A program made the position numbers and the translations under genes. The notes beneath the pieces are model-generated. The model saw only the letters and a list, made by a program, of their open reading frames with translations, did not search any database and had not been told where the DNA came from. From contig JACREF010000016.1 in the NCBI GenBank assembly GCA_016218365.1, positions 1 to 33,900 on the forward strand: a stretch of DNA of 33,900 nucleotides, given 5' to 3'. Shown here piece after piece: positions 13,027 to 33,900 of this stretch. This DNA is from Gammaproteobacteria bacterium. Lineage in GTDB: Bacteria > Pseudomonadota > Gammaproteobacteria > SZUA-140. Within the stretch, counting starts at the first letter, position 1, and each line of letters opens with the position of its first letter.

Positions 13027-14859
13027 TCAGTTCACTGCATTATCTGGCCGCTGCACAAAATTCCCATAGATATAATCAAAGCCATTCTTCCATAACAGGC
13101 TGTAGGTTTCTGCATCCTGCACAAAGGGGACAATCAGCTTCTTGCCAGACTCGCGAGCGATCCTGGCACAGTCGAGCAATTTCGCGAGCCTTCCAGGATC
13201 GATGGCAATATTATGAATCAGCGACCTGTCGAACTTGACATAATCCACCGGGATCGATTTTAACAGGGCCGCCGGGTTGTCATGCACACCGAAGTTCTCG
13301 ATCAACGTCAAACAGCTCAACTTGCGCAACATATCCACAATTTTTGTCACTTGCTCCGGATGAGAAACAGCGTCCCGTTCCCGAATCTGGAACACGATAT
13401 TGATCTTGCGTGTCTTCGATATCCTCAGATAGTCGACCAGCCAGGGCATAAACGTGTCATCCAGGATGGATTGACAGGATATCTTGACGAACAACCTTGC
13501 CCCGGTACTGATAAACATGTTCTGATGAATATACTCGAGCGCACGTACGACAACCCAGCGATCGATGTCGTGCATCATCCGCAGCTGCTCCGCCACCGGA
13601 ATGAAATGTGCAGGGGAGATCTCCGCATTATCTTCGCCGGTCAAACGCAACAATACTTCATAATCGCTGAAGGTATCTGCCACCGCGCTGCTGGCTATCG
13701 GCTGCAACCGCATCCTGAAACGGTTATTTTTCAGCGCATCTATCAACACTGTCTTGATCTGCTCCCCGGCATCTGCCGCGCCATGCTCGCCAGCATCAGT
13801 CGCCGGATCGTAGACATGGATGGCCCCGGCCTTGCCGGCCAGCGCCCGCCGTGCCGCGACATGTGCCTCGGCGATCACCCGGCGCAGGTCCACATCCCGG
13901 CGTAATGTTTCAGCATCCGGTCGTATCAGCCTGACACCCAATGCCATCGATGGCAGCAGACCGCCACGGACCCCGATCGGCAGCGCCGCCGTCACTTGAG
14001 CCATGACCTGGCCGGCCACACCGATCAGGCCCTCACCACCCGGATCAGCGGCCAGTGCGACGACCTGTCCTTCATCCACCTCGGTGACAGCCAGCAGTGA
14101 CAGGTCAGCACCCCTGAGTCGCTGCAGCAGCAATTTCTTCAGCCGCTGATAACCCTGGACACCATGGGCCTCGACGATGGACGCCGTGTCTTCAATGATC
14201 AAACTCAGGATGGCCAGCTTTCTACTGCCGGGTTCATCAATCGCCTGGTGTACAAACCTCAGGAATGGCTCCAGGCTCAGCATCCCGGCCCATTGATTAT
14301 CCTGTACAGCATCGTGAAGCAACAGATCTGCGGCCGGGATCTCTTGCTCGCCACCTGCCCGCTTGTCCCGGGCATCCGCCGCGGCCTGCGGCCTGCTCCG
14401 TACCTCGCTGGTGACCGGAGCGGATGACGCGATGCGGTCGCTGACAGCCGGTGCCTTGTTTTTTCGCGTCAGAAGCTCCAACTGTCGTTGCAAACTGATT
14501 TCCTTAACCACATTACCAATCTTTGCCAGCAGAATAATGGCTTCGTCGGACACGACATCCACCGCGCCGACATGCAGCGCATGCATGAGGCCGCGTTCTG
14601 TGACTGTTTTTACCAGAGCAAAGATATAGGTTGATTTTGCCGCCATCTTCGACAGCGGCGCAAAGGTGTTCAGCTCGGCCAGCTGTTCGGCCTGGCACAG
14701 GATGATATTCCAGCTCTGGTTACTCAGCTCGTATAACGCCTCCTTCAGCGAAACCGCGCGGATGATGCGCCATTCCGGATAACGCTGGAGTATCGTATCG
14801 CTGATCGCCTCGGTCCGTGAGCGCGATTCATCAATGATCAGCACTGATAATCGCTTCAT
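13027..14859 (-). CDS. FimX-like degenerate REC-GGDEF-EAL protein, predicted c-di-GMP receptor
   Basis: This 610-residue protein has three domains, none of which looks catalytic. Residues 3-115 fold like a receiver but have Cys55-Gln56 where the phosphorylated Asp belongs. A low-complexity linker (130-180) follows. Residues 195-350 resemble a GGDEF domain without the GGDEF motif. Residues 365-610 are an EAL domain with EVL (401-403), ENFG in place of DDFG, and IVPFVQDAET; these features, with FVKISCQSILDD and the ending GFDYIYGNFVQ, resemble FimX, a non-catalytic EAL receptor controlling type IV pili. Unlike FimX I see no PAS domain. ATG 14859 starts right at the receiver; a GTG 13 codons upstream is the alternative. 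It diverges from the cheY-like gene. Confidence 0.75.
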   Translation of the reverse strand: MKRLSVLIIDESRSRTEAISDTILQRYPEWRIIRAVSLKEALYELSNQSWNIILCQAEQLAELNTFAPLSKMAAKSTYIFALVKTVTERGLMHALHVGAVDVVSDEAIILLAKIGNVVKEISLQRQLELLTRKNKAPAVSDRIASSAPVTSEVRSRPQAAADARDKRAGGEQEIPAADLLLHDAVQDNQWAGMLSLEPFLRFVHQAIDEPGSRKLAILSLIIEDTASIVEAHGVQGYQRLKKLLLQRLRGADLSLLAVTEVDEGQVVALAADPGGEGLIGVAGQVMAQVTAALPIGVRGGLLPSMALGVRLIRPDAETLRRDVDLRRVIAEAHVAARRALAGKAGAIHVYDPATDAGEHGAADAGEQIKTVLIDALKNNRFRMRLQPIASSAVADTFSDYEVLLRLTGEDNAEISPAHFIPVAEQLRMMHDIDRWVVVRALEYIHQNMFISTGARLFVKISCQSILDDTFMPWLVDYLRISKTRKINIVFQIRERDAVSHPEQVTKIVDMLRKLSCLTLIENFGVHDNPAALLKSIPVDYVKFDRSLIHNIAIDPGRLAKLLDCARIARESGKKLIVPFVQDAETYSLLWKNGFDYIYGNFVQRPDNAVN

Positions 14860-15116
14860 ATGTACAGGATGTCTCCATGCCAGGGTTCGCTGCGACACAC
14901 AACGCCGCCAGCATTAATTATCGCCCAAGCCGTGGAATTATTTACATAGTATTCATGCCCATATCAGAAACGAACGCGCTTCGGGCCCGCACCCGGGACG
15001 TACCATTCCCGCCTCTGATGACCGTCTATCATCTTCCTCATGCCATACCGGGTGGGTGCCGATAAATTGGATGTCAGGTTTTACAGATCAAATGGTTATA
15101 CGGGCGGGGCGACAAG
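14860..15116. promoter_or_regulatory. Divergent promoter region between the FimX-like and CheY-like genes
   Basis: The 257 bp region must hold both promoters but neither can be set with confidence. GCCGATAA at 15058-15065 equals the -10 consensus of flagellar sigma-28, but the upstream TAAAGTTT-like element is missing at the right spacing. Confidence 0.3.
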
Positions 15117-15671: not shown

Positions 15672-18461
15672 TTACAAAGGTTTCAATAATCCTTCCAGCG
15701 CCGCTATCTGGCCATCAATCTGTTGCCAGATACCTTCCTTGCAGGCGGTCTCCAGCGCCTGGCAGATCTCTGCCAGCTCCGCTGCCCCGACCAACCTGGC
15801 AGCTGATTTGAGCTGATGGGCCGCCGAGGCCATCTGTTGCGAATCATCGCTGCTGTGACCCTGATGTATCCCGTCGATACATTCCCGCACCGTCTGCAGG
15901 AACAGCTCAATGAAATGGCGCTGGGTCGCGGGATCATCCCCGACAAACTCCTGCAGTGTGGCCTGATCCACCAGCTGCTCTGCAGCGTTTGCGACCGGAG
16001 TCTCTGCAGGTGGCGCCGGCGGTGCCGCACTGACCGCTGCTGCGGGTGCGGCACCTGATGCCTGCGACAGCCAGCGGGCCAGCACGCTGCCCAACTGCTG
16101 GATGTCGATCGGCTTGGCAAGATAATCATCCATGCCGGAGGCCAGGCAACGCTCGGCCTCGCCACTCAAGGCATTGGCGGTGATGGCAACGATCGGGACA
16201 TGCCCGCCCTGCGTACGCTCGATGTCGCGAATGGCCGCTGCCAGTGTGTAACCATCCATCTCCGGCATATTGCAATCGGTCAGGATGACATCATAATGAC
16301 CGGCCTGCCAGGCCTGCAGCGCCTGTTTGCCATTGGCAACAATCTCTGCCTCGCACCCCAGCGTATTCATCTGGTGACTGATCAGCTGCTGGTTCAGCAG
16401 GTTGTCTTCCGCCACCAGCACCGTGCCGGACAACCGGGACAGCGGGGCCACTGCCCCCGCCGCTGGCCGGGCGGCCGCCCGCACGGCGCCCGGCGGGCAG
16501 TGCGGCAGTTCCACCCAGAAGGTCGTCCCCTCACCGACAGTACTGACCAGCCCCAGCTGTCCGCCCATGCTCTCGACCAGCCGCTTGGTCAGCACCAGGC
16601 CGATGCCGGTCCCCTCGATGTTGCTGCGCTCCTTGCCCATCCTGTTAAAGGGCTGAAACAGCTGGGTCTGCTGCTGCGCGCTGATGCCATTGCCGGTATC
16701 CCTGACATTGACCCTGATCCGGCCCGCCGCAGCAGGGCTGCAATAAACATGCACTGCGCCCTGTTCACGATTGTATTTGATGGCGTTGGACAGCAGGTTC
16801 AGCAGCACCTGCTTGAGCCGCAGCGGATCGGCGCTCACCCATGCGTCATCACACCCGGACAGCTCAAAATGCAGCGTGACGCGGTATTTTCCGGCCACCG
16901 GGACAGCCAGCGTATGGCAGGACTCAATGACCTCGGGCAATGATACCGGCCCGATCTGCAAGGCCAGGTGGCCGCTGTCAACGCGCCCCAGATCGATGAT
17001 ATCGTCAATCAGCCCGAGCAGATGTTTGCCGCCACTGTAGATCTTGCGGGCAGTATCCCGGTGCACCTCGCTGAGATCAGCGGCATATTCAAAGAGCTGG
17101 GCAAAGCCCATGATGGCATTCAATGGCGTGCGCAATTCATGACTCATCGAGGACATGAAACCCGATTTGGCCTTGTTGGCCTGTTCGGCGTCCACCTTGG
17201 CGGCCTCCAGCTCGCTGTCATGGCGCTGGCGCTCGGTGATGTCACGGATCACGCCGGTGAACAGCACCTTGTTGCTGATATTCGTGCGGGTAATGGAGAT
17301 CTCGATCGGGAAGGTCTCACCATCCTTTCTTCGCCCGTTGAACTCCCGCACCCGGCCCAGCACATGGGTCGTGCCGAACTGCAGGTAGTTGCGCAGGCTG
17401 TCATCATGGGTGCTGTGATAGGGCTCCGGCATCAGCAGGCTGACATTGCGGCCGATCACCTCGGCGCGGGCATAGCCAAAGATCTGCTCGGCCGCCGGAT
17501 TGAAGGATTCAATGATGCCTTGTCCATCTATCGTGACGATGGCATCGGCGACCGTCTGCAGTATCGAGCGGTTCTTGGCCTCGCTCTCCTCCAGCGCCGC
17601 CGTCCGCGCCCTGACCTGCTCCTCCAGCAGCAATGAAGTGTCCTGGATCTTGGACGTCATGTCGTTGAATACCTGGATCACACTTCCCAGCTCATCGTTT
17701 TCCGCTTCTTCGATCCGGTAGCCAAGATTACCCGACCTGATCTTCTCCGCCGCATTTTTCAGATTCGTGACTGGGGCCAGCAGGCGGCGCCCCATGTAGC
17801 GGCCCAGCAGCAGTGCCAGCAGCAGCGACGCCGTCAGGACGGCGACGGTGGAATAGACCAGCAGATCTTCCGAGGCCGTGACATCCTCGGCCGTCATATC
17901 GATGCCCAGCACCGCCTCCAGGCTGCCGTCGCTGCGGTAGATCGGCGCATAGGCCGACATAAACTCGCCCCACTTGTCGGTATACGGCGCCTGATCGCTG
18001 AACGGCGCCTTGATAGTGCGCAGCGCGGCCGGGAGAAATGCCGGGGCAGAATCATAGACATCGCCCAGATTGCTGATGTCTTTGGGATCCGAGCCATCGA
18101 CGACGAAGATGATCTGCCCGGCGGCATTGACCCGCATCGTGTAAATGAAATGCAGCTTGGGATTGGCCTGCATGATCGCCCGCAAGCGGTCGCGGATCCG
18201 GTGGTAATCAGCGCCAGATTGCTGCGAGGGCTCGGTCAGCCGGCTGTGCAGGTCGCCATCGACCTGCAGCGCCGCGGTCGCGGCAAAGCTGGTCAGATAG
18301 CCGCGCAGCTTTTCGGCATCAATATGCTTTTCGACGACATAATACGCCGCGGACAGTGCCACCGAGGTAAACACCGACACCGCGATCAGATACAGGCTGA
18401 AGCGCGCCCGGATCGTCAACGGCCCGGCAAACATATGCGGCATCCTGATGCTGATCGCCAT
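15672..18461 (-). CDS. Membrane hybrid histidine kinase (sensor-HAMP-PAS-HisKA-HATPase-REC-Hpt)
   Basis: The 929-residue kinase has a helix at 20-43, a Cache-like periplasmic sensor (about 45-198), a second helix (203-222), HAMP (223-275), a PAS domain (290-412), HisKA with His441 in SHELRTPLN, HATPase with N box Asn559 and G boxes DTGNGIS and GTGIGL, a receiver with Asp729 (TDCNMPEMDG) and an Hpt domain with His882 (AHQLKSA). It can therefore run a complete His-Asp-His relay and pass phosphate to a separate receiver. The single receiver encoded 2 bp upstream is the obvious candidate, with the facing CheY-like protein as another. It is the last gene of the eight-gene operon. Signal unknown. 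Confidence 0.9.
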   Translation of the reverse strand: MAISIRMPHMFAGPLTIRARFSLYLIAVSVFTSVALSAAYYVVEKHIDAEKLRGYLTSFAATAALQVDGDLHSRLTEPSQQSGADYHRIRDRLRAIMQANPKLHFIYTMRVNAAGQIIFVVDGSDPKDISNLGDVYDSAPAFLPAALRTIKAPFSDQAPYTDKWGEFMSAYAPIYRSDGSLEAVLGIDMTAEDVTASEDLLVYSTVAVLTASLLLALLLGRYMGRRLLAPVTNLKNAAEKIRSGNLGYRIEEAENDELGSVIQVFNDMTSKIQDTSLLLEEQVRARTAALEESEAKNRSILQTVADAIVTIDGQGIIESFNPAAEQIFGYARAEVIGRNVSLLMPEPYHSTHDDSLRNYLQFGTTHVLGRVREFNGRRKDGETFPIEISITRTNISNKVLFTGVIRDITERQRHDSELEAAKVDAEQANKAKSGFMSSMSHELRTPLNAIMGFAQLFEYAADLSEVHRDTARKIYSGGKHLLGLIDDIIDLGRVDSGHLALQIGPVSLPEVIESCHTLAVPVAGKYRVTLHFELSGCDDAWVSADPLRLKQVLLNLLSNAIKYNREQGAVHVYCSPAAAGRIRVNVRDTGNGISAQQQTQLFQPFNRMGKERSNIEGTGIGLVLTKRLVESMGGQLGLVSTVGEGTTFWVELPHCPPGAVRAAARPAAGAVAPLSRLSGTVLVAEDNLLNQQLISHQMNTLGCEAEIVANGKQALQAWQAGHYDVILTDCNMPEMDGYTLAAAIRDIERTQGGHVPIVAITANALSGEAERCLASGMDDYLAKPIDIQQLGSVLARWLSQASGAAPAAAVSAAPPAPPAETPVANAAEQLVDQATLQEFVGDDPATQRHFIELFLQTVRECIDGIHQGHSSDDSQQMASAAHQLKSAARLVGAAELAEICQALETACKEGIWQQIDGQIAALEGLLKPL

Positions 18462-18463
18462 GC

Positions 18464-18889
18464 TCAGCCCCCGGTGTCCTTGCCCGGCGCTGCTGCCGCC
18501 TGCCGTGCCGCCAGATATTTGTCCAGCACCGCCTCGATCCGGCTGCCCTTGTACGGCTTGACGACAAAGTCGCGGGCGCCGGACTGCAGAGCGGCCTGGA
18601 CATTCTTGCCGGTGCCGTCACCGCTGACGATGACGACAAAGGCCTGCGGGTTGATGGCCAGGATCTCCGCCAGCACGACAAAACCGTTCTTCTTCGGCAT
18701 GTTGATATCGAGCATGACGATATCGGGGCGCTTGTCGCGGTAGCGCTCTGCCACATGCTCGCCATTGAATTCCGCATGCACCTCCCGGCAGCCGAAACCG
18801 GCCAGCAGATGTTTCATCAGATCGAGCATCATGCCGCTGTCTTCGGCCAGCAGTATCCGCAGCTCACCAAACCTGTTTATCACCGTCAT
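18464..18889 (-). CDS. Single-domain response regulator
   Basis: A 141-residue receiver with Asp16-type acidic pocket (LLAEDSG), phospho-acceptor Asp61 (MLDINMPKKNG), Ser/Thr switch in IVSGDGT and Lys in VVKPY, followed by a short Ala/Gly-rich tail. It has no output domain. A GGGGAGG site lies 9 bp before the ATG. It is 2 bp from the hybrid kinase gene and 18 bp from the preceding gene, so it is almost surely co-expressed with the kinase and a likely relay partner. Confidence 0.9.
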   Translation of the reverse strand: MTVINRFGELRILLAEDSGMMLDLMKHLLAGFGCREVHAEFNGEHVAERYRDKRPDIVMLDINMPKKNGFVVLAEILAINPQAFVVIVSGDGTGKNVQAALQSGARDFVVKPYKGSRIEAVLDKYLAARQAAAAPGKDTGG

Positions 18890-18907
18890 GACACCATACC
18901 TCCCCGT

Positions 18908-19618
18908 TCAACCTTCACGCTGCGTGCCGGCCCCGGCCGCAAACAGATAACCCAGTTCCGCCAGCCGATCGGCGATGCTGTACGGAACATCCTTGGCAAA
19001 CAGATCAAGCAGTACCACCGCATTGACCGCCGCGTCCTGGCCACAGGCCGCCTTCAGCCGACCGGCAAACGCCCGGTTGACGGCCTGCAGCCCCTGATAG
19101 CTGTCGCCCAGCCCGGACAGATCGAGGGCGGGCACGCCGTCCGCGTCAGCGGCGAAATAGCGCGACAACAACCAGGTGGACACGGCGCGGAAGATGGTCT
19201 CCTCTTCGGAGGCGAACGGCAGATGAAATTTCGCCATCGGCCGCAGAAAGCGCATGTGCGGGCAGGCGCTGGTCGCCATCACCAGTCCGAGCAGCGAGCT
19301 CAGGCCACGCTGTACTGTGGTGTCCCGGCTGTAGCTGCGCTCCGCGGTCGTCACGACGACCCTGGCCTGCTGGTATGACAGCAGCCCGCCGCATTCGCTG
19401 ATCAGCGGCATCAGATTGACCGCCACCGGACACCACGGCGTATCCTGCGCGGTGAGCGGACAGTTGGCACACTGGTGAAACCCCAGCCGCGTCCACTCCG
19501 GCAGCGCCGTGTCCTGGTTGCCGGCGTGCTGCAGCAGGCTGCGGGCATCCACACGCACATCGAAGCTGGAGCGGCGGTCGCCGAAGTCAAAGCAATAGTT
19601 GATGGTCAGCTCTGTCAT
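18908..19618 (-). CDS. Conserved protein of unknown function, DUF6901-like, with Cys cluster
   Basis: The 236-residue soluble protein has no signal peptide or membrane segment. It opens with a beta-rich segment and then PEWTRLGFHQCANCPL with Cys50, Cys53 and Cys63 and a nearby His48. A second conserved-looking block, LSSLLGLVMATSACPHMRFLRPMAKFHLPF (Cys119, His121), follows. The rest is helical. From memory this resembles the DUF6901 family; I cannot confirm it. The Cys/His set could bind a metal. It is 13 bp after the REC-PilB gene and 18 bp before a response regulator, so it belongs to the operon and may be an accessory factor of the ATPase. Confidence 0.6.
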   Translation of the reverse strand: MTELTINYCFDFGDRRSSFDVRVDARSLLQHAGNQDTALPEWTRLGFHQCANCPLTAQDTPWCPVAVNLMPLISECGGLLSYQQARVVVTTAERSYSRDTTVQRGLSSLLGLVMATSACPHMRFLRPMAKFHLPFASEEETIFRAVSTWLLSRYFAADADGVPALDLSGLGDSYQGLQAVNRAFAGRLKAACGQDAAVNAVVLLDLFAKDVPYSIADRLAELGYLFAAGAGTQREG

Positions 19619-19631
19619 CGCCAGCGGCCGC

Positions 19632-21869
19632 CTACATCACCACCTGCGGCCCGAGCACCCGCAGCACCTCTTCCACCGTCGTCAGCCCGGCATTGACCTT
19701 GTCGCGGGCATCCTCGATCAGGCTGGTGATCCCCTGTTGCTGGGCCAGTTTCGCGATCTCGATAAACCCGGCGCCCGAGGCGATCAGCTCCTTCATCTCG
19801 GCGCTGGGGATCAGGATCTCATACAGCGCGACGCGGCCGGCATAACCGCTCTTGTTGCAGCGCGGACACCCTTCCCCCTTGTAGAACTTGATCTCCGGCG
19901 CCTGGAAATGCTCGCCGAGCTTGTGACGCAGCTCGGCGGCGATCGCCACCGGCCGGCGGCAGCTGCTGCAGATCTTGCGTGCCAGCCGCTGGGCGATGAT
20001 GGCCTCGATTGCCGAGGCCAGCACATAGGGTTTCAGCCCGAGATCGAGCAGCCGGGCAATGGTGGCGATGCTGGAGTTGGTGTGCAATGTCGAATACACC
20101 AGATGACCGGTCAGCGCCGCATGAAACGCCACCTCGGCGGTCTCGAAATCGCGGATCTCGCCCAGCAGGATGACATCCGGGTCCTGGCGCAGGATCGCGC
20201 GCAGCACGGTGGAGAAATCCAGGCCGATCTTCTCCTTGATCATCACCTGCCCGGCCATGTCGAGATAATATTCCACCGGGTCCTCGATGGTCACATAGTT
20301 GCGTTCCGGCGTCGCGTTGTGCTGCAGCATCGAATACAGCGTCGTGGTCTTGCCGCTGCCGGTCGGGCCGGTGGCCAGGATGATGCCCTGCGGTTTGCTG
20401 ACGACGTTCTCCACCTTGATGATGTTCTCGGCCGACAGGCCGAGGTCGCTGATCTTCTGCACACTGGCATTGCGGTCCAGCAGCCGCATCACCACCTTCT
20501 CGCCGTTGATCGTCGGCAAGGTGCTGATGCGCAGGTCGATGATGCGCAGCGGCGTCTTGACGGTGATGCGGCCATCCTGCGGCCGCCGCCGCTCGGTCAG
20601 ATCCAGCTCCGCCATCACCTTGATCCGCGACACCAGCGCCAGATGGATGTTGTGCGGGAACTGGATCTTGTCCTGCAGCACGCCGTCGATACGGTAACGG
20701 ACCACGACGCTCTTGGTGCGCGGATGGATATGGATGTCGCTGGCACCAAGCCGCACCGCCTCCAGCATGATGACATTGGCGAGGCGGATCGCCGGCGGCT
20801 CTTCGGTGCCATGCAGCAGCTCCTCGAGACCGATATCGTCATCATCCTCGATGACAATCTCGATACCGTCCGCGGGGTCATCGCCGCCCAGTACCGTCTC
20901 CAGGTCCTCGAACGACAGCGTCTCGCCATGGATCGCCGCGATCTTTTCCTTGATGTCACGGATGTTGGCCATCACCGGCTGGATCTCCATGCCGGCGGAG
21001 AACTTCAGGTCGTCGATCAGGCCCAGGTCCATCGGGTCTGCCATCACCAGTACCAGTCGCCGCTGCTCCAGCCGCAATGGCAGCACCAGCTGTTTGTCGC
21101 AGAATGACCGTGGCAGCAGTGCCGTGACGACCGGCTCGATGTTCATCTCCGCCAGGTTGACCTCCTCGATCAGCAGGTCTTTTTTCAGCACCTCGCGGAT
21201 CTGCTGTTCGCTGACCCAGCCGCTTTTCAGAATGAGCTGGATCACCGGCTCCTTACGCTGCTGTTGCTGGGTGTAGATCTGCTGCACCTGCTGCTGATTC
21301 AGCAGGCCCTTGCGGTGCAGCAGGATCGCCAGCTGACTGCGGTTGGTGACCGTCAGTTTTGACAGCGCCTTGATCTCCCGGCTCTTGCTGTCGTTCTGCT
21401 GCCGCAGCGCCCGGTTCTTCCGCAACAGGTCATGCTGTTCCAGCGCCAGCGCCACCGACACCCGCAGATCATCATCATTCCACGGCTTGAGGATGAACTT
21501 GTAGACCGCGCCATCCTTGATCGCCCCCATCACCGCCTCGGTGTTGGCCTGGCCGGTCAGCATGATGCGCATGACGCCGGGATATTTGTCCCGGACCTGG
21601 CGCAACAACTCGACGCCATTCATCGTTGGCATCATGAAGTCCGCAATCATCAACTGGCAGGGCTGCCGCTCCAGCAGTGCCAGCGCCGCCGCGCCGCTCG
21701 CGACACTGTGGATCTGGTAATTCTCGTTACGAAACACCCGGCGCAGCGCATTGACGATATTCTCCTCGTCATCGACCAGCAGCAGATGATAGGGCACGGT
21801 CTTGCCGGGCCCGGGCACCCCCCCCGGCGTTGCGGCGCCGTCTGAAAACAATGAGCCGAATCGGTTCAT
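19632..21869 (-). CDS. Receiver-fused PilB/GspE-type assembly ATPase
   Basis: The 745-residue protein fuses a receiver (28-145; phospho-acceptor Asp77 in MIADFMMP, Lys in ILKPW) to a type II secretion/type IV pilus ATPase. After a coiled linker come a GspE/MshE-like N-terminal domain (about 176-310), an N2 domain (GASDIHIHP) and the motor: Walker A 501-508 (GPTGSGKT), Walker B (DPDVILLGEIRD), a His box, and a four-Cys zinc site (Cys634, Cys637, Cys668, Cys671). PilB and GspE normally lack a receiver, so motor activity may be under phosphorylation control. No pilin, PilC or secretin gene is in the window. Pilus extension and secretion are both possible roles. Confidence 0.88.
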   Translation of the reverse strand: MNRFGSLFSDGAATPGGVPGPGKTVPYHLLLVDDEENIVNALRRVFRNENYQIHSVASGAAALALLERQPCQLMIADFMMPTMNGVELLRQVRDKYPGVMRIMLTGQANTEAVMGAIKDGAVYKFILKPWNDDDLRVSVALALEQHDLLRKNRALRQQNDSKSREIKALSKLTVTNRSQLAILLHRKGLLNQQQVQQIYTQQQQRKEPVIQLILKSGWVSEQQIREVLKKDLLIEEVNLAEMNIEPVVTALLPRSFCDKQLVLPLRLEQRRLVLVMADPMDLGLIDDLKFSAGMEIQPVMANIRDIKEKIAAIHGETLSFEDLETVLGGDDPADGIEIVIEDDDDIGLEELLHGTEEPPAIRLANVIMLEAVRLGASDIHIHPRTKSVVVRYRIDGVLQDKIQFPHNIHLALVSRIKVMAELDLTERRRPQDGRITVKTPLRIIDLRISTLPTINGEKVVMRLLDRNASVQKISDLGLSAENIIKVENVVSKPQGIILATGPTGSGKTTTLYSMLQHNATPERNYVTIEDPVEYYLDMAGQVMIKEKIGLDFSTVLRAILRQDPDVILLGEIRDFETAEVAFHAALTGHLVYSTLHTNSSIATIARLLDLGLKPYVLASAIEAIIAQRLARKICSSCRRPVAIAAELRHKLGEHFQAPEIKFYKGEGCPRCNKSGYAGRVALYEILIPSAEMKELIASGAGFIEIAKLAQQQGITSLIEDARDKVNAGLTTVEEVLRVLGPQVVM

Positions 21870-21878
21870 GACATTGCC

Positions 21879-23117
21879 CTAGTCCCGCACCGGCAGCAGG
21901 ATCGTGAACACCGTCCCCTGTCCCGGCGTGCTGTGCACGGTGATGTCGCCGCCATGCGCGGTAATGATGTCGCGGCTCACCGTCAGGCCGAGGCCGGTAC
22001 CGCTGCCGACATCCGCGGTGGTGAAGAACGGATCAAAGATGCGCGGCAGGACCTCGGCGCTGATGCCGACACCGCTGTCGGCAATCTGCAGCCGCAGCCG
22101 GCCATCATCCAGCGCGGTGGTTACGGTGATCGTGCCCTGTCCGGTGATCGCCTTGCCGGCGTTCAACAGCATGTTCAGCAGCGCCTGGCCCAGATGCGCC
22201 GGCCGGCAGCGCGTGGCCGGCAGGCCGTCGGCCAGTTGCAGCTGCAGCCCGGCATGGCGGGTGATCTCGCGCAATACGATATTGCACACACCGCGGACGA
22301 TGCCATTGAGGTCGGCGACCTCCTCGTCACTGCCATCGATATTGGCAAAGCCCTTCAGGTTCCTGACGATGGCCGCGATCCGCTGCGCCCCGCTGCTGCT
22401 CTCGGTCAATAACTTCTGGAAATCATTGAGCACGAAGACCAGGTCCTTGCGCTGCATCACTGCGCTGATGTCCGCCGCCGCGGCGCCCTGGGCGATGCAC
22501 TCCACCACCTCGGCCAGATCGCTGACATAGGACTGCGCCGTCACCAGATTGCTGTTGATGAAACCGATCGGATTATTGATCTCATGGGCCACGCCGGCGG
22601 CCAGCTGCCCGACCGCGGCCATCTTCTCCGCCTGATACAGCTGCAGCCGGGTGTGCTCGATCGTCCTGAGCTGCTCCGCGACCCGCTGCTCCAGCGTCGC
22701 GGCCAGCTCCTTGTAGCGCGCCTCCGATTCCAGCAATGCGCTGTGCTGCGCCTGCAGCCGCGCATAGTCATCGTTGACGGCATGCAGATGCAGCGTCGAG
22801 GCCATCTGGTAACGCGCCGCGCCCTGCAGCAGCAGCTCGATCAGTGTGGCGGCGGCCGGCGCGTCATCCTCTTGCTGCACCAGCAGATAACCGACGGTCT
22901 CCAGCTCGGCGCGCAGCGGCACGCGGCATATTGCAGTGTCCAGCGCCTCGCCGACCAGGCATTCCCCGTTGACTGCGCACAGCGCAAACGGTGCGCCCAG
23001 CAACTGGCGCAGCGCGGCCGCCAGTCTTTCTGTATTGATGCCGGCCAGCAGCTCGCGCAGCTCCAGCGCGCGGTCAAAGGCCGGCAGCGGCAGTGTGTCC
23101 TGCGCATTACTGGCCAT
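21879..23117 (-). CDS. Soluble histidine kinase
   Basis: The 412-residue kinase has no membrane segment. Residues 1-115 form a small alpha/beta sensor-like region that I do not recognise with certainty (weakly GAF-like), then a coiled coil (120-165), HisKA with His178 ([11 protein letters not shown]), and HATPase with DSGVGIS and GTGLGL. ATG 23117 is chosen because GGAGGG lies just upstream; a start 58 codons earlier would lie inside the GTPase gene. It overlaps the MglA-like gene by 11 bp, which implies translational coupling, and precedes the REC-ATPase by 9 bp. That receiver is the most natural target for its phosphate, by position. Confidence 0.88.
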   Translation of the reverse strand: MASNAQDTLPLPAFDRALELRELLAGINTERLAAALRQLLGAPFALCAVNGECLVGEALDTAICRVPLRAELETVGYLLVQQEDDAPAAATLIELLLQGAARYQMASTLHLHAVNDDYARLQAQHSALLESEARYKELAATLEQRVAEQLRTIEHTRLQLYQAEKMAAVGQLAAGVAHEINNPIGFINSNLVTAQSYVSDLAEVVECIAQGAAAADISAVMQRKDLVFVLNDFQKLLTESSSGAQRIAAIVRNLKGFANIDGSDEEVADLNGIVRGVCNIVLREITRHAGLQLQLADGLPATRCRPAHLGQALLNMLLNAGKAITGQGTITVTTALDDGRLRLQIADSGVGISAEVLPRIFDPFFTTADVGSGTGLGLTVSRDIITAHGGDITVHSTPGQGTVFTILLPVRD

Positions 23118-23766
23118 GCGACCCTCCGAGCAGGCCGGTGATAAACTGCTGCTGATCCAGTCCATGATCCTTGCCCAGAGCCAGCCGCGGATCGACTGCC
23201 TGATACACCCGGCCCAACAGCTCGGCCAGTGTCTCGATGACACCACGACCCTGCAAGGCACAGGCAAACAGCACCGGCCACGGCGTGCCACGCCATTGCT
23301 CCATGATCTGCTGCTCGCTGAGGATCTCCGGCAGGTCGCGCTTGTTGAATTGCGCCACCAGCGGCAGCGTCGCCGGATCCTGGCCGACCCGGCCGATATT
23401 GTCGATCAGGTTCTCGAATGACCCGGCATTGTTGATAGCCTGGTTGCGCTGCGAATCGGCGACAAAGACCACGCCGTCGGCACCCGACAGCACCGCCTTG
23501 CGTGTGCTGTCATGCGCCACCTGCCCCGGTACCGTGAACAGCCTGAGCTTGATCAGCAGGCCGGATGGCGCGCTCAGCCCGAGCGGCAGCAGGTCAAAAA
23601 ACAGCGTGCGGTCGTTTTTGGTCTCCAGCACCATCATCTCGCCCTTGAGCTCCGGCGCCAGCAGGTCATGCAGCCGCACCAGATTGGTGGTCTTGCCGCT
23701 CAGCGCCGGCCCGTAATAGACCAGCTTCAGCGTCAGCCGGTGTGCCTGTTCATCAAGATCCGCCAT
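23107..23766 (-). CDS. mglA: MglA-like Ras-superfamily small GTPase
   Basis: The 219-residue protein has the MglA signature: P-loop GPALSGKT (19-26), NDRTLFFD containing Arg53, TVPGQ (78-82) with Gln82, VFVADSQ, and the guanine-specificity motif NKRD (141-144). Arg53 and Gln82 fall on the same numbers as the intrinsic arginine finger and catalytic glutamine described for MglA. MglA sets cell polarity and drives type IV pilus and gliding motility in Myxococcus and Thermus. ATG 23766 is chosen because of the GAGAGGG site before it. No mglB-like (roadblock) partner is nearby. The C-terminal tail after residue 185 is Gly/Gln-rich. The family is clear; the role in polarity is inferred. Confidence 0.9.
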   Translation of the reverse strand: MADLDEQAHRLTLKLVYYGPALSGKTTNLVRLHDLLAPELKGEMMVLETKNDRTLFFDLLPLGLSAPSGLLIKLRLFTVPGQVAHDSTRKAVLSGADGVVFVADSQRNQAINNAGSFENLIDNIGRVGQDPATLPLVAQFNKRDLPEILSEQQIMEQWRGTPWPVLFACALQGRGVIETLAELLGRVYQAVDPRLALGKDHGLDQQQFITGLLGGSHGQ

Positions 23767-23798
23767 CGACCCTCTCCGCTGCCAAGCCATCCATTTTT

Positions 23799-25112
23799 CT
23801 ACCCGTCAACCCCTTTGATCTGCTTCATCAGCACATAGATCTCCAGCTGCTCTGCTGACGACTTGGCGAACAGCGCGATCTTGTCAATCAGCATCCGGTC
23901 GAGGATATGGCCCTCGGCCAGCACCAGGATGCCCTCCTTGGTGATCAGGTCGCGCGCCAGCACCATGCCCGGCCGCAGCTCGGCCTCGCCGATCCGGATC
24001 GGCGGGATTGTCACCGCCCTCTTTTCCGTCACCACGTTGTCGTCAAGGAAGGCGTCGACGACCCGCGGGTCATACAGCCGGCCCTTGTTGATGATCAGGT
24101 ATTCACGGGCCTCAGCCGGCAGCAGCCGCTTCGGCACCAGCAGGCCCTGTTGCAGCGCATCATAATCATTGACCACCGCCAGGATCCGCGCCCCAAGCGG
24201 GATCGCCTCGCCGCTGATGCCAGCCGGATATCCCGAGCCATCCAGATATTCATGGTGACTGCGGATCATCCTTGCGGCCTCGTTCAGCGGGCCGAAACCC
24301 AGCAGCAGCACCTCACCGAGTGCCGGGTGCCGCGCCACCGCCTGCTTCTCGGCGCCCCCCAGCGCCGCGAACGGTTTTCTGGCCAGCTCATCGGGCAGGC
24401 TGATCTTGCCGATGTCGTGCAGCAGCGCGGCAAAGAAGATCTGCTGGATCTGTTCCTTGTCGAGGCCGAGCCGCAGCGCCACCTTCTGCGCCCCTTCGGC
24501 GACCCGCTTCGAATGGCCGGCCCCGGTGCCCTCGCGCAGCCCGATCAGGTTCGAGAAGGTCTTGATCGATGAAAAATAACTCTTGCGCAGCGACTCGTGC
24601 GCGGCGCGCAGCTCCCGGGTCCGCTCCTCGACCTTTTTTTCCAGATTCGCGTTCAGATCCTTGAGCTGATCATTCTGCTGTCGTGTCAGCGCCAGCAGCC
24701 GGTCGCGCTCGGCCTGCAGATGTTTGGCCTCCAGCGCATGCTGCACCGTCAGCCTGATGTCATTGTCTTCCCACGGCTTGCTGATGTATTTATAGATGCT
24801 GCCTTCATTGACGGCGCGGATCGTCGAGCCGATGTCGGCATAACCAGTCAGCAATATCCGCACCGTCTGCGGCCAGCGCTGCGCCACCTGGGCCAGCAGC
24901 TCGGCGCCGTCCATCTCCGGCATCCGCATGTCGGAGATCAACAGATCAACCGGCTGCTGCTCCAGCAGCGCCAGCGCCTCGCGGCCCGAGCCGGCGGTCA
25001 GGATCTGGTGGCCGGTGGCGCGAAACAGCCGCTTCAACGACGACAGGATGTTCTGTTCGTCATCAACAAACAGCAGCGTCGATTTCAGGGTGTCCTGGCT
25101 CTCGGTCGGCAC
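23799..25112 (-). CDS. REC-HD-GYP response regulator, c-di-GMP phosphodiesterase
   Basis: The 437-residue protein has a receiver (12-130; Asp61 in ISDMRMPEMDG, Lys in ISKPW), a coiled-coil linker (130-180) and an HD-GYP domain. The metal and catalytic motifs are intact: His232-Asp233 (LLHDIGK), HHEYLDGSGYP (286-296) and the downstream NDYDAL. This is the RpfG type of enzyme that degrades c-di-GMP, with activity set by phosphorylation of the receiver. Translation starts at GTG 25112, 8 bp after a GGAG; no in-frame ATG is available. It is 28 bp after the REC-kinase and 32 bp before the GTPase. Confidence 0.93.
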   Translation of the reverse strand: MPTESQDTLKSTLLFVDDEQNILSSLKRLFRATGHQILTAGSGREALALLEQQPVDLLISDMRMPEMDGAELLAQVAQRWPQTVRILLTGYADIGSTIRAVNEGSIYKYISKPWEDNDIRLTVQHALEAKHLQAERDRLLALTRQQNDQLKDLNANLEKKVEERTRELRAAHESLRKSYFSSIKTFSNLIGLREGTGAGHSKRVAEGAQKVALRLGLDKEQIQQIFFAALLHDIGKISLPDELARKPFAALGGAEKQAVARHPALGEVLLLGFGPLNEAARMIRSHHEYLDGSGYPAGISGEAIPLGARILAVVNDYDALQQGLLVPKRLLPAEAREYLIINKGRLYDPRVVDAFLDDNVVTEKRAVTIPPIRIGEAELRPGMVLARDLITKEGILVLAEGHILDRMLIDKIALFAKSSAEQLEIYVLMKQIKGVDG

Positions 25113-25140
25113 GGTCCATGCTCCTGGAAGAATGATCTGG

Positions 25141-26379
25141 TCAATGGTCGGCCTTCGGTATCGCCTGCTTCACCGGCAGCGTGATGGTGAAGGTCGTGCC
25201 CTTGCCGACCTCGCTGTGCACGTCGATCGAGCCGGCATGGCGTTCGATGATGCCATAGGACAGCGACAGGCCGAGGCCGGTGCCCTTGCCGACCGGTTTG
25301 GTGGTGAAGAACGGGTCGAAGATCTTGCGCAGGTTCTGCTCCGGGATGCCCTTGCCGGTGTCGCTGATCTTGATCCACACCTTGTCACCGCTGACGCCGG
25401 TGCTGAGGGTGATGGTGCCGCGCTGCTCGATGGCCTGCGCGGCGTTGACCAGCAGGTTCATGATGACCTGGTTGATCTGCGAGGCGATGCACTCGACCAA
25501 GGGCAGCGTGCCGTAGTTCTTGATCACCTCGGCCTTGTACTTGATCTCGTTGTGGACGATGTTCAGCGTGCTGTCGATGCCCTTGTGCAGGTCGGTCCAC
25601 TGCCATTCGGCCTCGTCGACGCGCGAGAAATCCTTCAGGTCCTGGACGATCTGCCGCACCCGGGTCACCCCCTCGCGTGATTCCTTCAGCAGATCGGTGA
25701 TGTCCTGCTTCAGAAAGCCCAGATCGGTCTGCTGCTTCAGCGTCGCGACCTCGGCCTTGGCCGGGTTGCCGTCGGCGATACTGGCCTCCATACGCTCATA
25801 GGCCTCGAGGATCCGGAACAGCTCATCGATATAACCCTGCAGCGCGCCGATGTTTGAGGTGATATACCCGACCGGATTGTTGATCTCGTGCGCAACACCG
25901 GCCGCCAGCTGGCCGATCGCCGCCATCTTCTCTGACTGCAACAGCTGCCCCTGCGCCTCTTCCAGCTTGCGGTAGGTGCGCGCCGACTCGGCATGGGCCT
26001 CGCGGTTCCTGATCGCCAGCTTGAGCTTCTCGTGCAGCTCGGGAAACTGCACCGGCTTGACCAGATAATCGCTGCCGCCGGCCTTGTAGCCGATGATCTT
26101 TTCCTCGGCGGAATTGTTGGCGGAGATGAACAGCACATCGATGTCACGCAGCTCCGGGTGCTGCTTGAGCCGGCGGCAGGTCTCGTAGCCATCGATGCCC
26201 GGCATCATCACATCCATCAGGATCACATCCGGCCGCGGGTTGCGCGCCGCCAGCTCCAGCGCCTTGGCGCCGCTGGTCGCCGCCAGCACCGCGTAGTCCT
26301 GCTTCAGGTTCTCCATCAGGATCTGGATGTCGTTGGCCGAATCGTCGACGATCAGCACCCGCTTCTTTTCAGCCGTCAC
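25141..26379 (-). CDS. REC-histidine kinase fusion
   Basis: The 412-residue soluble protein has an N-terminal receiver (7-125; Asp56 in [11 protein letters not shown], Lys in LVKPV), a coiled coil, HisKA with His164 ([11 protein letters not shown]) and HATPase (DTGKGIP, GTGLGL). Receiver-first kinases often relay signals from another kinase. It starts at GTG 26379, 7 bp after AGGA. It is the first gene of the eight-gene operon. Its receiver is about 72% identical, without gaps, to that of the protein at 29233-30366, and part of the DNA is nearly identical, so the two are recent duplicates or have undergone gene conversion. Confidence 0.92.
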
Positions 26380-27037: not shown

Positions 27038-27901
27038 TCAGGCCAGCAACTCCGCCAGCGCGCGTTTGGCCTCGACATCGGCCAGCCACGTTCGCAAGGC
27101 CGTGGCGTCGAGCCCGAGCCGGTGCACACTGGCCCCCGGCAGTGCCTGCAGCGGGTCTTCACCCGGCAGCGGCGCGGTGGACAGCGCAGCGGCCAGCTGC
27201 ACGATATCGACGATCGGGTCCGGCGCAGTCTCTTGCGTGTCATCCGGACCGGCAATCGCCTGCCGGATCACGGCCGGCAGCGCCCACTGCTGCGCCACCC
27301 GCAGGCCGAGCAGGCGGTGATCGATGCCGAACACCGCCTGCTCGGCCTGCTGCCGCGTCCCGTGGTGCAGGCCCTGCCAGGCCTCGACCTGTTGCAGCGC
27401 GTCGCTGAAACAGCAGGCCATGACCATCGTGCCCAGATCATGCAGCATGCCGGCGGTGAAGGCGGTCTCACCGTCGCGGTGACAGCGCTGCGCCAGCGCC
27501 TGCGCCGCGATCGCCCGTTCCATCGCCTGGCGCCACAACGGCCCGAGTCGCGACGCCTCACCCATACTGAAGCAGTCGCGGATGCCGATGGCCGCGGCCA
27601 GATTGCGCACGGCATTGTTGCCGAGCACGACGCAGGCCTGCCTGATCGACGTGACCTGTCCGGCCAGCCCGAAGAACGGCGAGTTGGCCAGCCGCAGGAT
27701 GCGCGCGGTCAGTCCCGGATCCTGGGCCAGTACCCGCGACACCTTGCCGATGTCGACGTCCTGCTGCTGCGTCAGCCCCAGCACCTGGGTCACCGTCGTC
27801 GACAGCGCCGGCAGCCGTTTCAGTCCACGTTCGATGTCCCCCGGTGTCAGCACCTGCATGCCTCCTGCTGCCTTTCCCATGTGTTCAACATTGCTCATCA
27901 T
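27038..27901 (-). CDS. HDOD-domain protein
   Basis: The 287-residue protein is one HDOD domain (about 20-215): LPALSTTVTQVLGLT, DPGLTARILRLANSPFFG, IRQACVVLGNNAVRNLA, and an HD pair in MLHDLGTMVM. HDOD proteins are non-enzymatic or poorly understood relatives of HD-GYP that occur in bacterial signalling, motility and c-di-GMP networks. The C-terminal 70 residues are a less conserved helical tail. The start is uncertain: ATG 27901 and the next codon have no ribosome binding site, while ATG 27859 has AGGAGG almost touching it. The gene stands alone between two REP arrays of opposite orientation. Confidence 0.88.
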   Translation of the reverse strand: MMSNVEHMGKAAGGMQVLTPGDIERGLKRLPALSTTVTQVLGLTQQQDVDIGKVSRVLAQDPGLTARILRLANSPFFGLAGQVTSIRQACVVLGNNAVRNLAAAIGIRDCFSMGEASRLGPLWRQAMERAIAAQALAQRCHRDGETAFTAGMLHDLGTMVMACCFSDALQQVEAWQGLHHGTRQQAEQAVFGIDHRLLGLRVAQQWALPAVIRQAIAGPDDTQETAPDPIVDIVQLAAALSTAPLPGEDPLQALPGASVHRLGLDATALRTWLADVEAKRALAELLA

Positions 27902-28234: not shown

Positions 28235-29053
28235 CTACCTGTGTTCCTGCGGCACCAGCATCAACACGGTGCCATGCCCCTGCGATGACCGGCCAATCCG
28301 GCTGCGCAACACCTGCAGCGCCGTGCTGCCGGTCTGCAGGGTACAGCCCGCTGCACCGTCCCCCGGCGGACGCGCCAGGCAGTCGAGCAGCGGCGCCGGT
28401 AACACATCCTGCGCCAGATCGCCGATCAGCAGTGGCCCGTGCTGCCCCAGCAGCTGCTGCGCCGCCTGGTTGGCGACGACCAGCATGCCCTGATCATCGA
28501 CGCCGATGACGCCGAGCGGCAGGTTGTCGAGGATCTCCTGCTCCATCTGCAGCACCGTCAGCCGGCGCTGCGCCTTGCCCGACTCCTCGGCCACCTGGTG
28601 CTGCAGGCCCTGGTTGACGGCGCTGAGCCGTTCGTTGGCCTGACGCAGCTCTTCGGTCAGCCGGGCATTCTCTTTTTTCAGTTCAAAGCGGTGGAAGGCC
28701 TCGCCGACGTTCTTGCGCAGCAGCTCGTCATCCCACGGCTTGGTCAGAAACTTGTAGACCGCGCCACGGTTGATGGCATCGGTCACTGAATTGAGGTCGG
28801 TGTAGCCGCTGAGCACGATGCGCACCGTGTCGGGATGGCGCTCCTTGACCTGACTCAGAAACTCGACCCCGCTCATCTCCGGCATCCGCTGGTCGGAGAT
28901 GATGACGCCGACCTCGTGCTGCGCCAGCAGCGCCAGCCCGGCCGCGCCGCCAGTGGCGCTGAGGATCCGGTAGCCGTCGCGGCGCAACAGCCGGGTCAAC
29001 GCCGCCAGGATGTTTTCCTCGTCATCAACCAATAATAAGGTCCGTTCCGTCAT
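28235..29053 (-). CDS. Response regulator with C-terminal PAS domain
   Basis: The 272-residue protein has a receiver (4-120; Asp54 in ISDQRMPEMSG, Lys in LTKPW) of the same subtype as the HD-GYP regulator, a coiled coil (125-170) and a PAS-like domain (about 175-265: NLPLGVIGVDDQGMLVVANQAAQQLLG). It has no enzymatic output and ends soon after the PAS, so it may be a scaffold or sensor. It could also be a shortened relative of longer REC-PAS-HD-GYP or REC-PAS-kinase proteins. A GGGAG site lies 6 bp before the ATG. Confidence 0.88.
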   Translation of the reverse strand: MTERTLLLVDDEENILAALTRLLRRDGYRILSATGGAAGLALLAQHEVGVIISDQRMPEMSGVEFLSQVKERHPDTVRIVLSGYTDLNSVTDAINRGAVYKFLTKPWDDELLRKNVGEAFHRFELKKENARLTEELRQANERLSAVNQGLQHQVAEESGKAQRRLTVLQMEQEILDNLPLGVIGVDDQGMLVVANQAAQQLLGQHGPLLIGDLAQDVLPAPLLDCLARPPGDGAAGCTLQTGSTALQVLRSRIGRSSQGHGTVLMLVPQEHR

Positions 29054-33500: not shown

Positions 33501-33900
33501 GATCGTAGAACGTGCGCGAGGCCTGGTCCCACGCGATGTCGCTGACCGCCAGGCTCCGGGCATAACGGGTACCGTCGGCCGCCGTCACGGCCTCGGCGAT
33601 GAAACCGAACTCGCTGCCGGTCAGCGTCAGGATATCGGGTAACAGCGACTCGAAAAACTCGCGCGGGTCGCCGCCGGCGATGAAGCTGGACTGGATGCGG
33701 TTGATGATGCTGATCAGGTGCTGCTGCGTGACCAGCTCCAGCTCCATCTTTTTACGCGCGGTGATGTCGCGGCCGATGCCAATGAATATCGACCGCTTGT
33801 TGACCAGCGCGCCGCTGATCGACAGCTCCAGCGGGAACGCCGTGCCATCCTTGCGCAGGCCGTGGATCTCGCGGATCGTGCGCTGGGTGCCGCCCTGAAA
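30577..33900 (-). CDS. Hybrid histidine kinase, PAS-GAF-PAS-HisKA-HATPase-REC-REC-Hpt (partial, N-terminus off the edge)
   Basis: The reading frame is open to the right edge, so the 1,107 visible residues lack the true start; the ATG at 33747 is internal. The first 51 residues are the end of a PAS domain (RKDGTAFPLEL, GIGRDITARKK). Then come GAF (about 60-230), a second PAS (245-370), HisKA with His398 (SHEIRTPMNG), HATPase (DTGIGIS, GTGLGL), two receivers with Asp686 (LLDVVMPDING) and Asp823 (LMDIQMPVMDG), and Hpt with His971 (AHTLKGSGGN). No membrane segment is visible in this part. The layout is that of BarA-like multistep kinases. It is upstream of the other signalling genes on the same strand. 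Confidence 0.92.
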   Translation of the reverse strand, partial: FQGGTQRTIREIHGLRKDGTAFPLELSISGALVNKRSIFIGIGRDITARKKMELELVTQQHLISIINRIQSSFIAGGDPREFFESLLPDILTLTGSEFGFIAEAVTAADGTRYARSLAVSDIAWDQASRTFYDQHKEQGLEFRNPATLFGRVIMTGQPVISNDPAHDPHSGGLPGGHPPLETFLGLPLLLGPRLVGIIGLANRRGGYDQAVIERLQPLLSTCAQLISAIGSERDKKAAALALKRSNSFMTALVENMQRGVLVEDELGKIHVVNQTYCDLFDKAEMPLMIEGESAAQQFEDNRLLFADAAAFLQLRHDCMAGQRVVSSAELALADGRFFEQDYVPVIVEDEQGNVHRRHLWAFRDVSERKQVQLRLQQAKEAAEAAALAKSQFLATMSHEIRTPMNGVLGMLHLLSRSELDDKQRRHVATAVGSGELLLTVINDILDFSKLEAGKVELETIPFDLVTLLEQTVALQAKGAHEKRLELLTVIDPAVPSRVNGDPTRLRQILTNLISNAIKFTGRGEVVVYAQPAPGNRICFGVRDTGIGISDEQRQRLFQAFSQVDSSHTRKYGGTGLGLAICQRLVATMGGEISVVSSPGAGTDFSFELPLETASDDEGTQMRVSALLSSQRVLVVDDNPYVRNLLRAVLKSWQVVKIGVAEGGRDALQQLRAAATAGVPYDIALLDVVMPDINGLELARRIRSEPALNGMLLVMVSAVEQPGPEPAVNGWLAKPLRRSELYNTLVQLIGGQSPVSTELAPASSPAGGWWFNGSRLLLVEDNLVNQQVASEILGEAGLTVEVRENGAEALQAVQQHDYAVVLMDIQMPVMDGLEATRQIRALGGRFATLPILAMTAHALDGESDKSFAAGMNGHLTKPIDPEAVFRELARWITPGEKPPQATAVTAPSAVDDGPPSALPGIDLADGLARLNGNWASYKRILQGFHKQQADAAARLEQQLRAGEWDEATRLAHTLKGSGGNLGATGLYHSAAALEQACRRREVTVGDATFEALRASLTEVMAGLQALNNNAGVAAGAARAVDPQTWQTLLDQVLECLDSDLGQAQDRLAALQQQVAGSGYAAGAGELEQALNGFDIDAAKAIIERLRAA

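What the first reader, a model, noticed from the sequence alone, without database searches (positions are those of the whole stretch)
15672..26379. Eight-gene operon joining an MglA GTPase, a receiver-fused PilB/GspE motor, c-di-GMP hydrolysis and a phosphorelay
The order is REC-kinase, REC-HD-GYP, MglA, kinase, REC-PilB/GspE, Cys-cluster protein, REC, hybrid kinase, with gaps of 28, 32, -11, 9, 13, 18 and 2 bp. MglA is known for polarity control of type IV pili and gliding in Myxococcus and Thermus. Here it is encoded with an assembly ATPase that carries its own receiver. I infer a self-contained control unit that turns kinase and c-di-GMP signals into polar switching or activation of a pilus or secretion motor. 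I do not know of a described system with this exact set.
Basis: partly seen in the sequence, partly recalled or inferred. Interest (0 to 1): 0.85.

Follow-up and report, generated by a model that had tools for sequence, protein, structure and literature searches.

The report
GTPase–kinase–receiver-PilB motor operon
This stretch encodes a three-protein unit, conserved in many beta- and gammaproteobacteria, that puts a Ras-like switch (MglA type), a histidine kinase and a pilus-type motor ATPase carrying its own receiver domain side by side, so a signal could act directly on a pilus motor; no description of it was found, and its function is untested.

Summary
The eight genes are present as described, on the minus strand. 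The eight-gene set is not the conserved unit. Among the 80 closest GTPase loci, from many beta- and gammaproteobacteria, the same three genes follow one another wherever the contig is long enough: MglA-type GTPase, histidine kinase with its own N-terminal domain, receiver-MshEN-PilB/GspE ATPase. REC-HD-GYP joins in 58 of 80. DUF6901 is adjacent in a few; the last two genes (REC, hybrid kinase) have no clear counterpart. Two genes upstream of the stated range (HDOD, REC-PAS) belong to the wider cassette. In 369 genomes of the class, full receiver-PilB occurs in six, all with the GTPase; a seventh GTPase is a decaying remnant. One exception (G748) has GTPase and kinase but no receiver-PilB. Catalytic residues of the three core proteins are invariant. 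The ATPase is a distinct clade, below PilB and GspE cut-offs; the host also has canonical PilB, PilC, PilM, PilT and a separate GspE, and no MglB. Best reading: a phosphorylation- and GTPase-gated second assembly motor, probably for the host's type IV pilus. The target machine, the GTPase–motor contact and any polarity role are inferred. New variant of a known kind.

The parts
23107..23766 (-). Core gene 1: MglA-type Ras-like GTPase, Group 1 by motifs (219 aa; an ATG at 23790 would add 8 aa)
   Evidence: MglA structures 1e-42 to 1e-43; P-loop, Arg61, TVPGQ and NKxD invariant or nearly so in 84 sequences
21879..23120 (-). Core gene 2: histidine kinase with a family-specific N-terminal alpha/beta domain (413 aa)
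   Evidence: directly after the GTPase in all 80 loci; His179 and ATP-lid glycines invariant; AlphaFold2 pLDDT 91.5
19632..21869 (-). Core gene 3: REC-MshEN-T2SSE assembly ATPase (receiver-PilB, 745 aa)
   Evidence: phospho-Asp77, Walker A, Walker B/Glu, His box and four Cys invariant in 75 sequences; own clade at 100% SH-aLRT
23799..25112 (-). REC-HD-GYP phosphodiesterase, NCBIfam NosR-family response regulator; the commonest extra member
   Evidence: NF053512, 532 bits, cut-off 400; in 58 of 80 loci; its receiver is 49% identical to that of the ATPase
25141..26379 (-). REC-histidine kinase of the upstream cassette
   Evidence: counterparts in 24 of 80 loci
27038..27901 (-).
   Evidence: PF08668; counterparts in 26 of 80 loci
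28235..29053 (-).
   Evidence: counterparts in 31 of 80 loci at about 52% identity
18908..19618 (-). DUF6901 protein with four invariant Cys and one invariant His; occasional companion
   Evidence: PF21842, 244 bits; near the module in L025, L027, L039, L055, L060 and G259; Cys50, 53, 63, 119 and His132 invariant in 40
18464..18889 (-). Single receiver (CheY-like); local addition
   Evidence: only generic REC-level matches (about 30%) in relatives
15672..18461 (-). HAMP-PAS-HK-REC-Hpt hybrid kinase; local addition
   Evidence: no counterpart in the 80 loci

Best explanation
A conserved signalling unit that gates a second, dedicated assembly ATPase. Shown: GTPase, kinase and receiver-ATPase are co-inherited and keep every catalytic residue. 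Inferred, step by step: (1) the kinase, which looks cytosolic, phosphorylates the receiver on the ATPase and probably also the closely similar receiver of the neighbouring HD-GYP enzyme, so one signal lowers c-di-GMP and switches the motor; (2) the MglA-type GTPase, in its GTP form, recruits or licenses that motor at the pilus base, doing directly what MglA does through SgmX and FrzS in Myxococcus; (3) the motor drives extension of the host's type IVa pilus alongside, or instead of, ordinary PilB, because the module does not bring its own pilin, PilC or secretin.
For: Core order in all 80 loci with enough DNA, kinase often overlapping the GTPase, ATPase usually within 0-80 bp. Three of four more distant, complete genomes keep it too. 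Co-occurrence in 369 genomes: six of six receiver-PilBs have the GTPase; the next-best ATPases fall from 1e-172 to 1e-49 and lack the receiver. The single GTPase without it in that sample (G055) has decayed motifs and is followed by a truncated remnant of the kinase N-terminus, so the unit decayed together. Catalytic residues of all three proteins invariant. Receivers of ATPase and HD-GYP are 49% identical against 20-31% for the ATPase's receiver and the other receivers of the operon. Host has canonical PilB and PilC, PilT/U, PilM, and a separate GspD/GspE; all seven relatives tested have PilM. MglA recruits PilB through SgmX in Myxococcus (PMC11580455); a second extension motor is known in Acinetobacter (PMC8213720).
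Against: No experiment. G748 has an intact-looking GTPase and kinase followed by a REC-EAL-REC protein, and no receiver-PilB in the genome, so the GTPase-kinase pair can have another output. No interaction was tested. The ATPase scores below PilB, GspE and TfpB cut-offs, so its machine is not identified; the host also has a third PilB/GspF-like pair on C22. PilM was not base-lined in the class, so 7 of 7 is weak. Distances of the three proteins correlate (r 0.80-0.88), but shared descent alone would give that.
Confidence: 0.5

Rival explanations
1. The GTPase and kinase form a sensing pair whose output is exchangeable; the receiver-PilB is one of several possible outputs and the GTPase never touches the motor. 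The kinase's N-terminal domain reads the nucleotide state of the GTPase and passes it on as phosphate.
For: In G748 the pair persists without receiver-PilB and is followed by a REC-EAL-REC protein. The kinase N-terminal domain has no Pfam match and was seen here only beside the GTPase, and the kinase gene overlaps or abuts the GTPase gene in most loci.
Against: One exception among the loci examined; the ATPase is otherwise present and next to the pair.
Confidence: 0.25
2. The receiver-ATPase powers a type II secretion or other pseudopilus machine rather than a type IV pilus.
For: It scores almost equally with PilB (555 bits) and GspE (540 bits) models, both below cut-off. The host has a GspD-GspE-type system.
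Against: It carries an N-terminal MshEN-like domain, as PilB/MshE-type ATPases often do. The host T2SS has its own GspE. All seven module-bearing relatives tested have PilM; T2SS presence in them was not tested.
Confidence: 0.15
3. The linkage is ordinary clustering of signalling genes, with no joint function.
For: The wider neighbourhood is full of kinases and receivers, and the cassette is modular: L176 has HDOD, kinase, REC-HD-GYP and REC next to DUF6901 without the GTPase core.
Against: Flanking genes of the window other than the cassette are found in at most one of 80 loci, while the core is in all. Phyletic co-occurrence and joint decay in G055.
Confidence: 0.05

Closest known systems
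Myxococcus xanthus MglA-SgmX-FrzS-PilB pathway (PMC11580455, PMC7519303)
   Same: Group 1 MglA GTPase and a receiver-type protein act upstream of a PilB extension ATPase.
   Different: There mglA is not near the genes of its receiver partners (PMC4316618), the receivers are separate proteins (FrzS, RomR) and MglB is the GAP. Here GTPase, kinase and ATPase are neighbours, the receiver is fused to the ATPase and the host has no Roadblock protein.
Acinetobacter baylyi TfpB, a second extension motor (PMC8213720)
   Same: A PilB-family ATPase distinct from the canonical PilB encoded in the same genome.
   Different: TfpB model score 440 bits against a cut-off of 850; no GTPase or kinase partner is described for TfpB in what was read.
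Streptomyces conservons (Group 2 MglA: CvnA kinase, CvnB, CvnC, CvnD) as described in PMC4316618
   Same: Histidine kinase and MglA-family GTPase encoded together.
   Different: Conservons have an MglB homologue, CvnC and Group 2 GTPase motifs and no motor; here Group 1 motifs and a receiver-ATPase.
Group 3 MglA systems of beta/gammaproteobacteria (PMC4316618)
   Same: Overlapping taxonomic range; GTPase linked to a receiver-like protein.
   Different: Group 3 has MglB, a receiver-wHTH protein and GTPGQ; a locus of this look lies elsewhere in G266 (L204) and is separate.
c-di-GMP control of PilB-type ATPases through FimX/PilZ or MshE (as reviewed in PMC11580455, PMC11656802)
   Same: Signalling input acts on the extension ATPase; a c-di-GMP hydrolase is encoded beside it.
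   Different: Input here is a covalent receiver domain; the MshEN c-di-GMP motif is degenerate in the family.

Membership tests
MglA family, Group 1 (PMC4316618) | Intrinsic arginine next to the G2 threonine | tested here: met
   Arg61 in DRTLFFD, 84 of 84 sequences
MglA family, Group 1 (PMC4316618) | TVPGQ in G3 and [NT]KxD in G4 | tested here: met
   TVPGQ 84 of 84; NKxD 99-100%
   No PF03259 in the host; one of seven relatives has one, in a separate Group 3-like locus
Type IV-A pilus ATPase PilB (TIGR02538) | Score above the equivalog cut-off of 675.65 | tested here: not met
   555.2 bits; outside the clade of the host's canonical PilB
Type II secretion ATPase GspE (TIGR02533) | Score above the equivalog cut-off of 630.25 | tested here: not met
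   539.7 bits
TfpB second extension motor (NF053534) | Score above the equivalog cut-off of 850 | tested here: not met
   439.6 bits
T2SSE/PilB-type assembly ATPase superfamily | PF00437 with Walker A, Walker B/Glu, His box and tetracysteine | tested here: met
   427 bits; motifs invariant in 75 sequences
c-di-GMP-binding MshEN ATPases | Intact MshEN nucleotide-binding motif | tested here: inconclusive
   PF05157 matches, but the RLG and G positions vary: Q or R, A or G, N or G
Phosphorylatable receiver domain (of the ATPase) | Phospho-Asp, acidic pair, Thr and Lys | tested here: met
   Asp33/34, Asp77, Thr105 and Lys128 in 75 of 75
NosR-family REC-HD-GYP (NF053512) | Score above cut-off 400 | tested here: met
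   532.5 bits
NCBIfam T2SS_HK (NF038348) | Score above cut-off 450 | tested here: not met
   387.7 and 243.6 bits for the two kinases; upstream kinases of relatives also below
DUF6901 (PF21842) | Score above gathering cut-off 27 | tested here: met
   244 bits
Conservon (Group 2 MglA system) | CvnB (MglB homologue) and GTPGQ-type GTPase | tested here: not met
   No Roadblock in the host; TVPGQ GTPase

The most novel reading that the evidence does not exclude
A self-contained Ras-like/two-component switch that acts directly on a dedicated pilus motor: MglA-GTP binds the receiver-PilB or its kinase without MglB, SgmX, RomR or FrzS, giving beta/gammaproteobacteria a GTPase- and phosphorylation-licensed alternative extension motor.
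Probability: 0.4. Interest if true: 0.8.

Novelty: new variant of a known kind. Interest (0 to 1): 0.64.

Why it matters
[quoted passage not shown] Here the GTPase, a kinase and the motor are encoded next to each other with the receiver fused to the motor, also in culturable Rhodocyclales and Burkholderiales. That makes a direct GTPase-to-motor or phosphate-to-motor link testable with three proteins.

Tried and rejected
Kinase-motor fusion: long ORFs in L067, L071, L080 and L085 looked like kinase-PilB fusions, but the kinase lies in a separate frame; rejected. Roadblock-like kinase N-terminus: no Pfam match beyond chance at E up to 10, no PDB sequence match; the model shows helix, four strands, helix, without the middle helix of Roadblock (from my knowledge of that fold), but the domain was not folded or searched alone. 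Kinase model against PDB: the list is filled by the kinase core, so the N-terminal domain is barely tested. DUF6901 model: no convincing PDB match, best Foldseek E 0.3 and VIA Z 4.0; function left open. T2SS_HK as a named home for the kinases: scores below cut-off. DUF6901 as a core part: it is in 41 of 369 genomes, mostly without the module. Sigma-70 promoter and terminator scans: no more hits than shuffles. Papers: none found describing this gene set; DUF6901 and NF038348 are not mentioned in any held paper. The library lacks most subscription journals, so absence is weak evidence. Plasmid search with the GTPase: one distant Deinococcus MglA only.
Full report
Observation. The eight genes are there, in the order given, on the minus strand. 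The genome is an unnamed assembly of 2.26 Mb, 97% complete. Its closest named loci are gammaproteobacterial metagenome assemblies such as Chromatiaceae L013.

What is conserved. A scan of about 85,000 species genomes with the GTPase gave 80 loci at 60-71% identity, from Burkholderiales, Rhodocyclales, Nitrosomonadales, Chromatiales-like gammaproteobacteria and a Hahella assembly. In every locus a histidine kinase follows the GTPase, and the receiver-MshEN-PilB/GspE ATPase follows the kinase wherever the contig goes on. Exceptions are contig ends (L050, L088), frameshifted assemblies (L014, L019) and one extra double-receiver gene between kinase and ATPase (L037). With a coverage rule of 70%, counterparts were found for GTPase 80, kinase 78, ATPase 72 (the rest cut or frameshifted), REC-HD-GYP 58, REC-PAS 31, HDOD 26, REC-kinase 24, DUF6901 5, hybrid kinase 0; the single REC had only generic matches. 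The gene at the far upstream edge of the window appears once in 80, so general synteny does not explain the core. The wider cassette therefore reads REC-PAS, HDOD, kinase, REC-HD-GYP, (small REC), GTPase, kinase, receiver-PilB. It starts at 29053, upstream of the range given, and DUF6901, REC and hybrid kinase are local additions.

Co-occurrence. In 369 genomes drawn evenly from the class, the GTPase (E 1e-25 or better) is in seven and the full-length receiver-PilB in six, all among those seven; the next-best ATPases drop from 4e-172 to 2e-49 and match only outside the receiver. The seventh, G055, has a GTPase with broken motifs, followed by a fragment of the kinase N-terminus that runs into a stop: a joint remnant. 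A second sample of 398 genomes of the phylum gave four more distant GTPases (52-59%). Three (G506, G541, G737) have the core intact; G748 has GTPase and kinase followed by a REC-EAL-REC protein and no receiver-PilB anywhere. The module is patchy: two of twenty genomes in the host's own family have it.

Are the parts alive? GTPase: P-loop, Arg61 of G2, TVPGQ and NKxD are kept in essentially all 84 sequences, the signature of Group 1 MglA (PMC4316618); the nearest solved structures are MglA of Thermus and Myxococcus. It has a C-terminal tail of about 25 residues beyond the MglA core, with His209 in 84 of 84 and Phe216 in 82 of 84; in the more distant G737 the His is replaced, by eye. Kinase: His and ATP-binding glycines invariant. 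ATPase: phospho-Asp77, Thr105, Lys128, Walker A, GEIRD, His box and four Cys all invariant. The MshEN c-di-GMP motif is degenerate. So kinase, receiver, GTPase and motor all look active.

What kind of motor. Receiver-PilB forms one clade at 100% SH-aLRT with a long stem, apart from the host's canonical PilB and from its GspE. It fails the PilB, GspE and TfpB cut-offs. The host has canonical PilB with PilC (C11), GspD/GspE (C24), another PilB-like/GspF-like pair near a PilM-like gene (C22), an orphan MshEN ATPase (C18), PilT (C25), a PilT/U (C26) and PilM (C23). Seven of seven module-bearing relatives tested have a strong PilM, though the base rate was not measured. Since the module brings no pilin, platform protein or secretin, it must work on a machine encoded elsewhere; the type IVa pilus is the best guess. 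The receivers of the ATPase and of the adjacent HD-GYP are 49% identical, against 20-31% for the ATPase's receiver and the others, so one kinase may serve both.

MglB. The host has no Roadblock protein, nor do six of seven relatives. The one in G266 sits in a separate locus with a GTPGQ-type GTPase and a larger protein of the Group 3 kind. How GTP hydrolysis is stimulated here is unknown; the kinase N-terminal domain is a candidate but showed no Roadblock similarity.

Mechanism. In Myxococcus MglA-GTP recruits SgmX, which brings PilB to the pole by an unknown mechanism, helped by FrzS, a pseudo-receiver protein (PMC11580455). Here the same kinds of parts sit side by side with the receiver on the motor itself. 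I infer that the kinase phosphorylates the motor, and perhaps the HD-GYP enzyme, and that the GTPase licenses or places the motor. Shown: linkage, co-inheritance, conserved catalytic residues, host pilus genes. Not shown: any interaction, the signal, the target machine, any polarity role. G748 warns that the GTPase-kinase pair may also work with a different output.

DUF6901. Four Cys and one His invariant in 40 sequences suggest a metal site; a confident model had no convincing PDB match. It occurs in 41 of 369 genomes, mostly without the module, but in five of the six genomes that have receiver-PilB; by arithmetic on these counts the chance of that is below 1e-4, not corrected for genome size.

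Novelty. Wuichet and Sogaard-Andersen surveyed MglA neighbourhoods and reported that Group 1 neighbourhoods vary widely, apart from occasional PATAN proteins (PMC4316618). Searches of the held papers found no description of this set. I rate it a new variant of a known kind: known component families in a conserved arrangement that I could not find described.

Noticed in passing
L203 (G748): GTPase and kinase of this family are followed by a REC-EAL-REC protein, and the genome has no receiver-PilB: a natural output swap or loss.
   Followed up: partly
L129 (G055): Decaying GTPase followed by a truncated kinase N-terminus next to an intact kinase/REC-HD-GYP cluster: a remnant of the module.
   Followed up: yes
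L176 (G294): REC, HDOD, kinase, REC-HD-GYP and small REC cassette joined to DUF6901 without GTPase or receiver-PilB; the cassette is modular.
   Followed up: partly
18908-19618: DUF6901: widespread in the class (41 of 369 genomes), invariant Cys50, Cys53, Cys63, Cys119 and His132, confident model without a convincing PDB match.
   Followed up: partly
L139:9057-10856: An orphan MshEN-PilB-like ATPase (600 aa) on a very long branch of the ATPase tree, convergent with an hpnE hopanoid gene in the host genome.
   Followed up: no
13027-14898: Protein with a C-terminal EAL domain and an N-terminal part resembling a degenerate receiver, just downstream of the operon on the same strand; possibly a further c-di-GMP component.
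   Followed up: no
30577-33747: GAF hybrid kinase with two receivers and Hpt upstream on the same strand; counterpart in only one relative (L013).
   Followed up: partly
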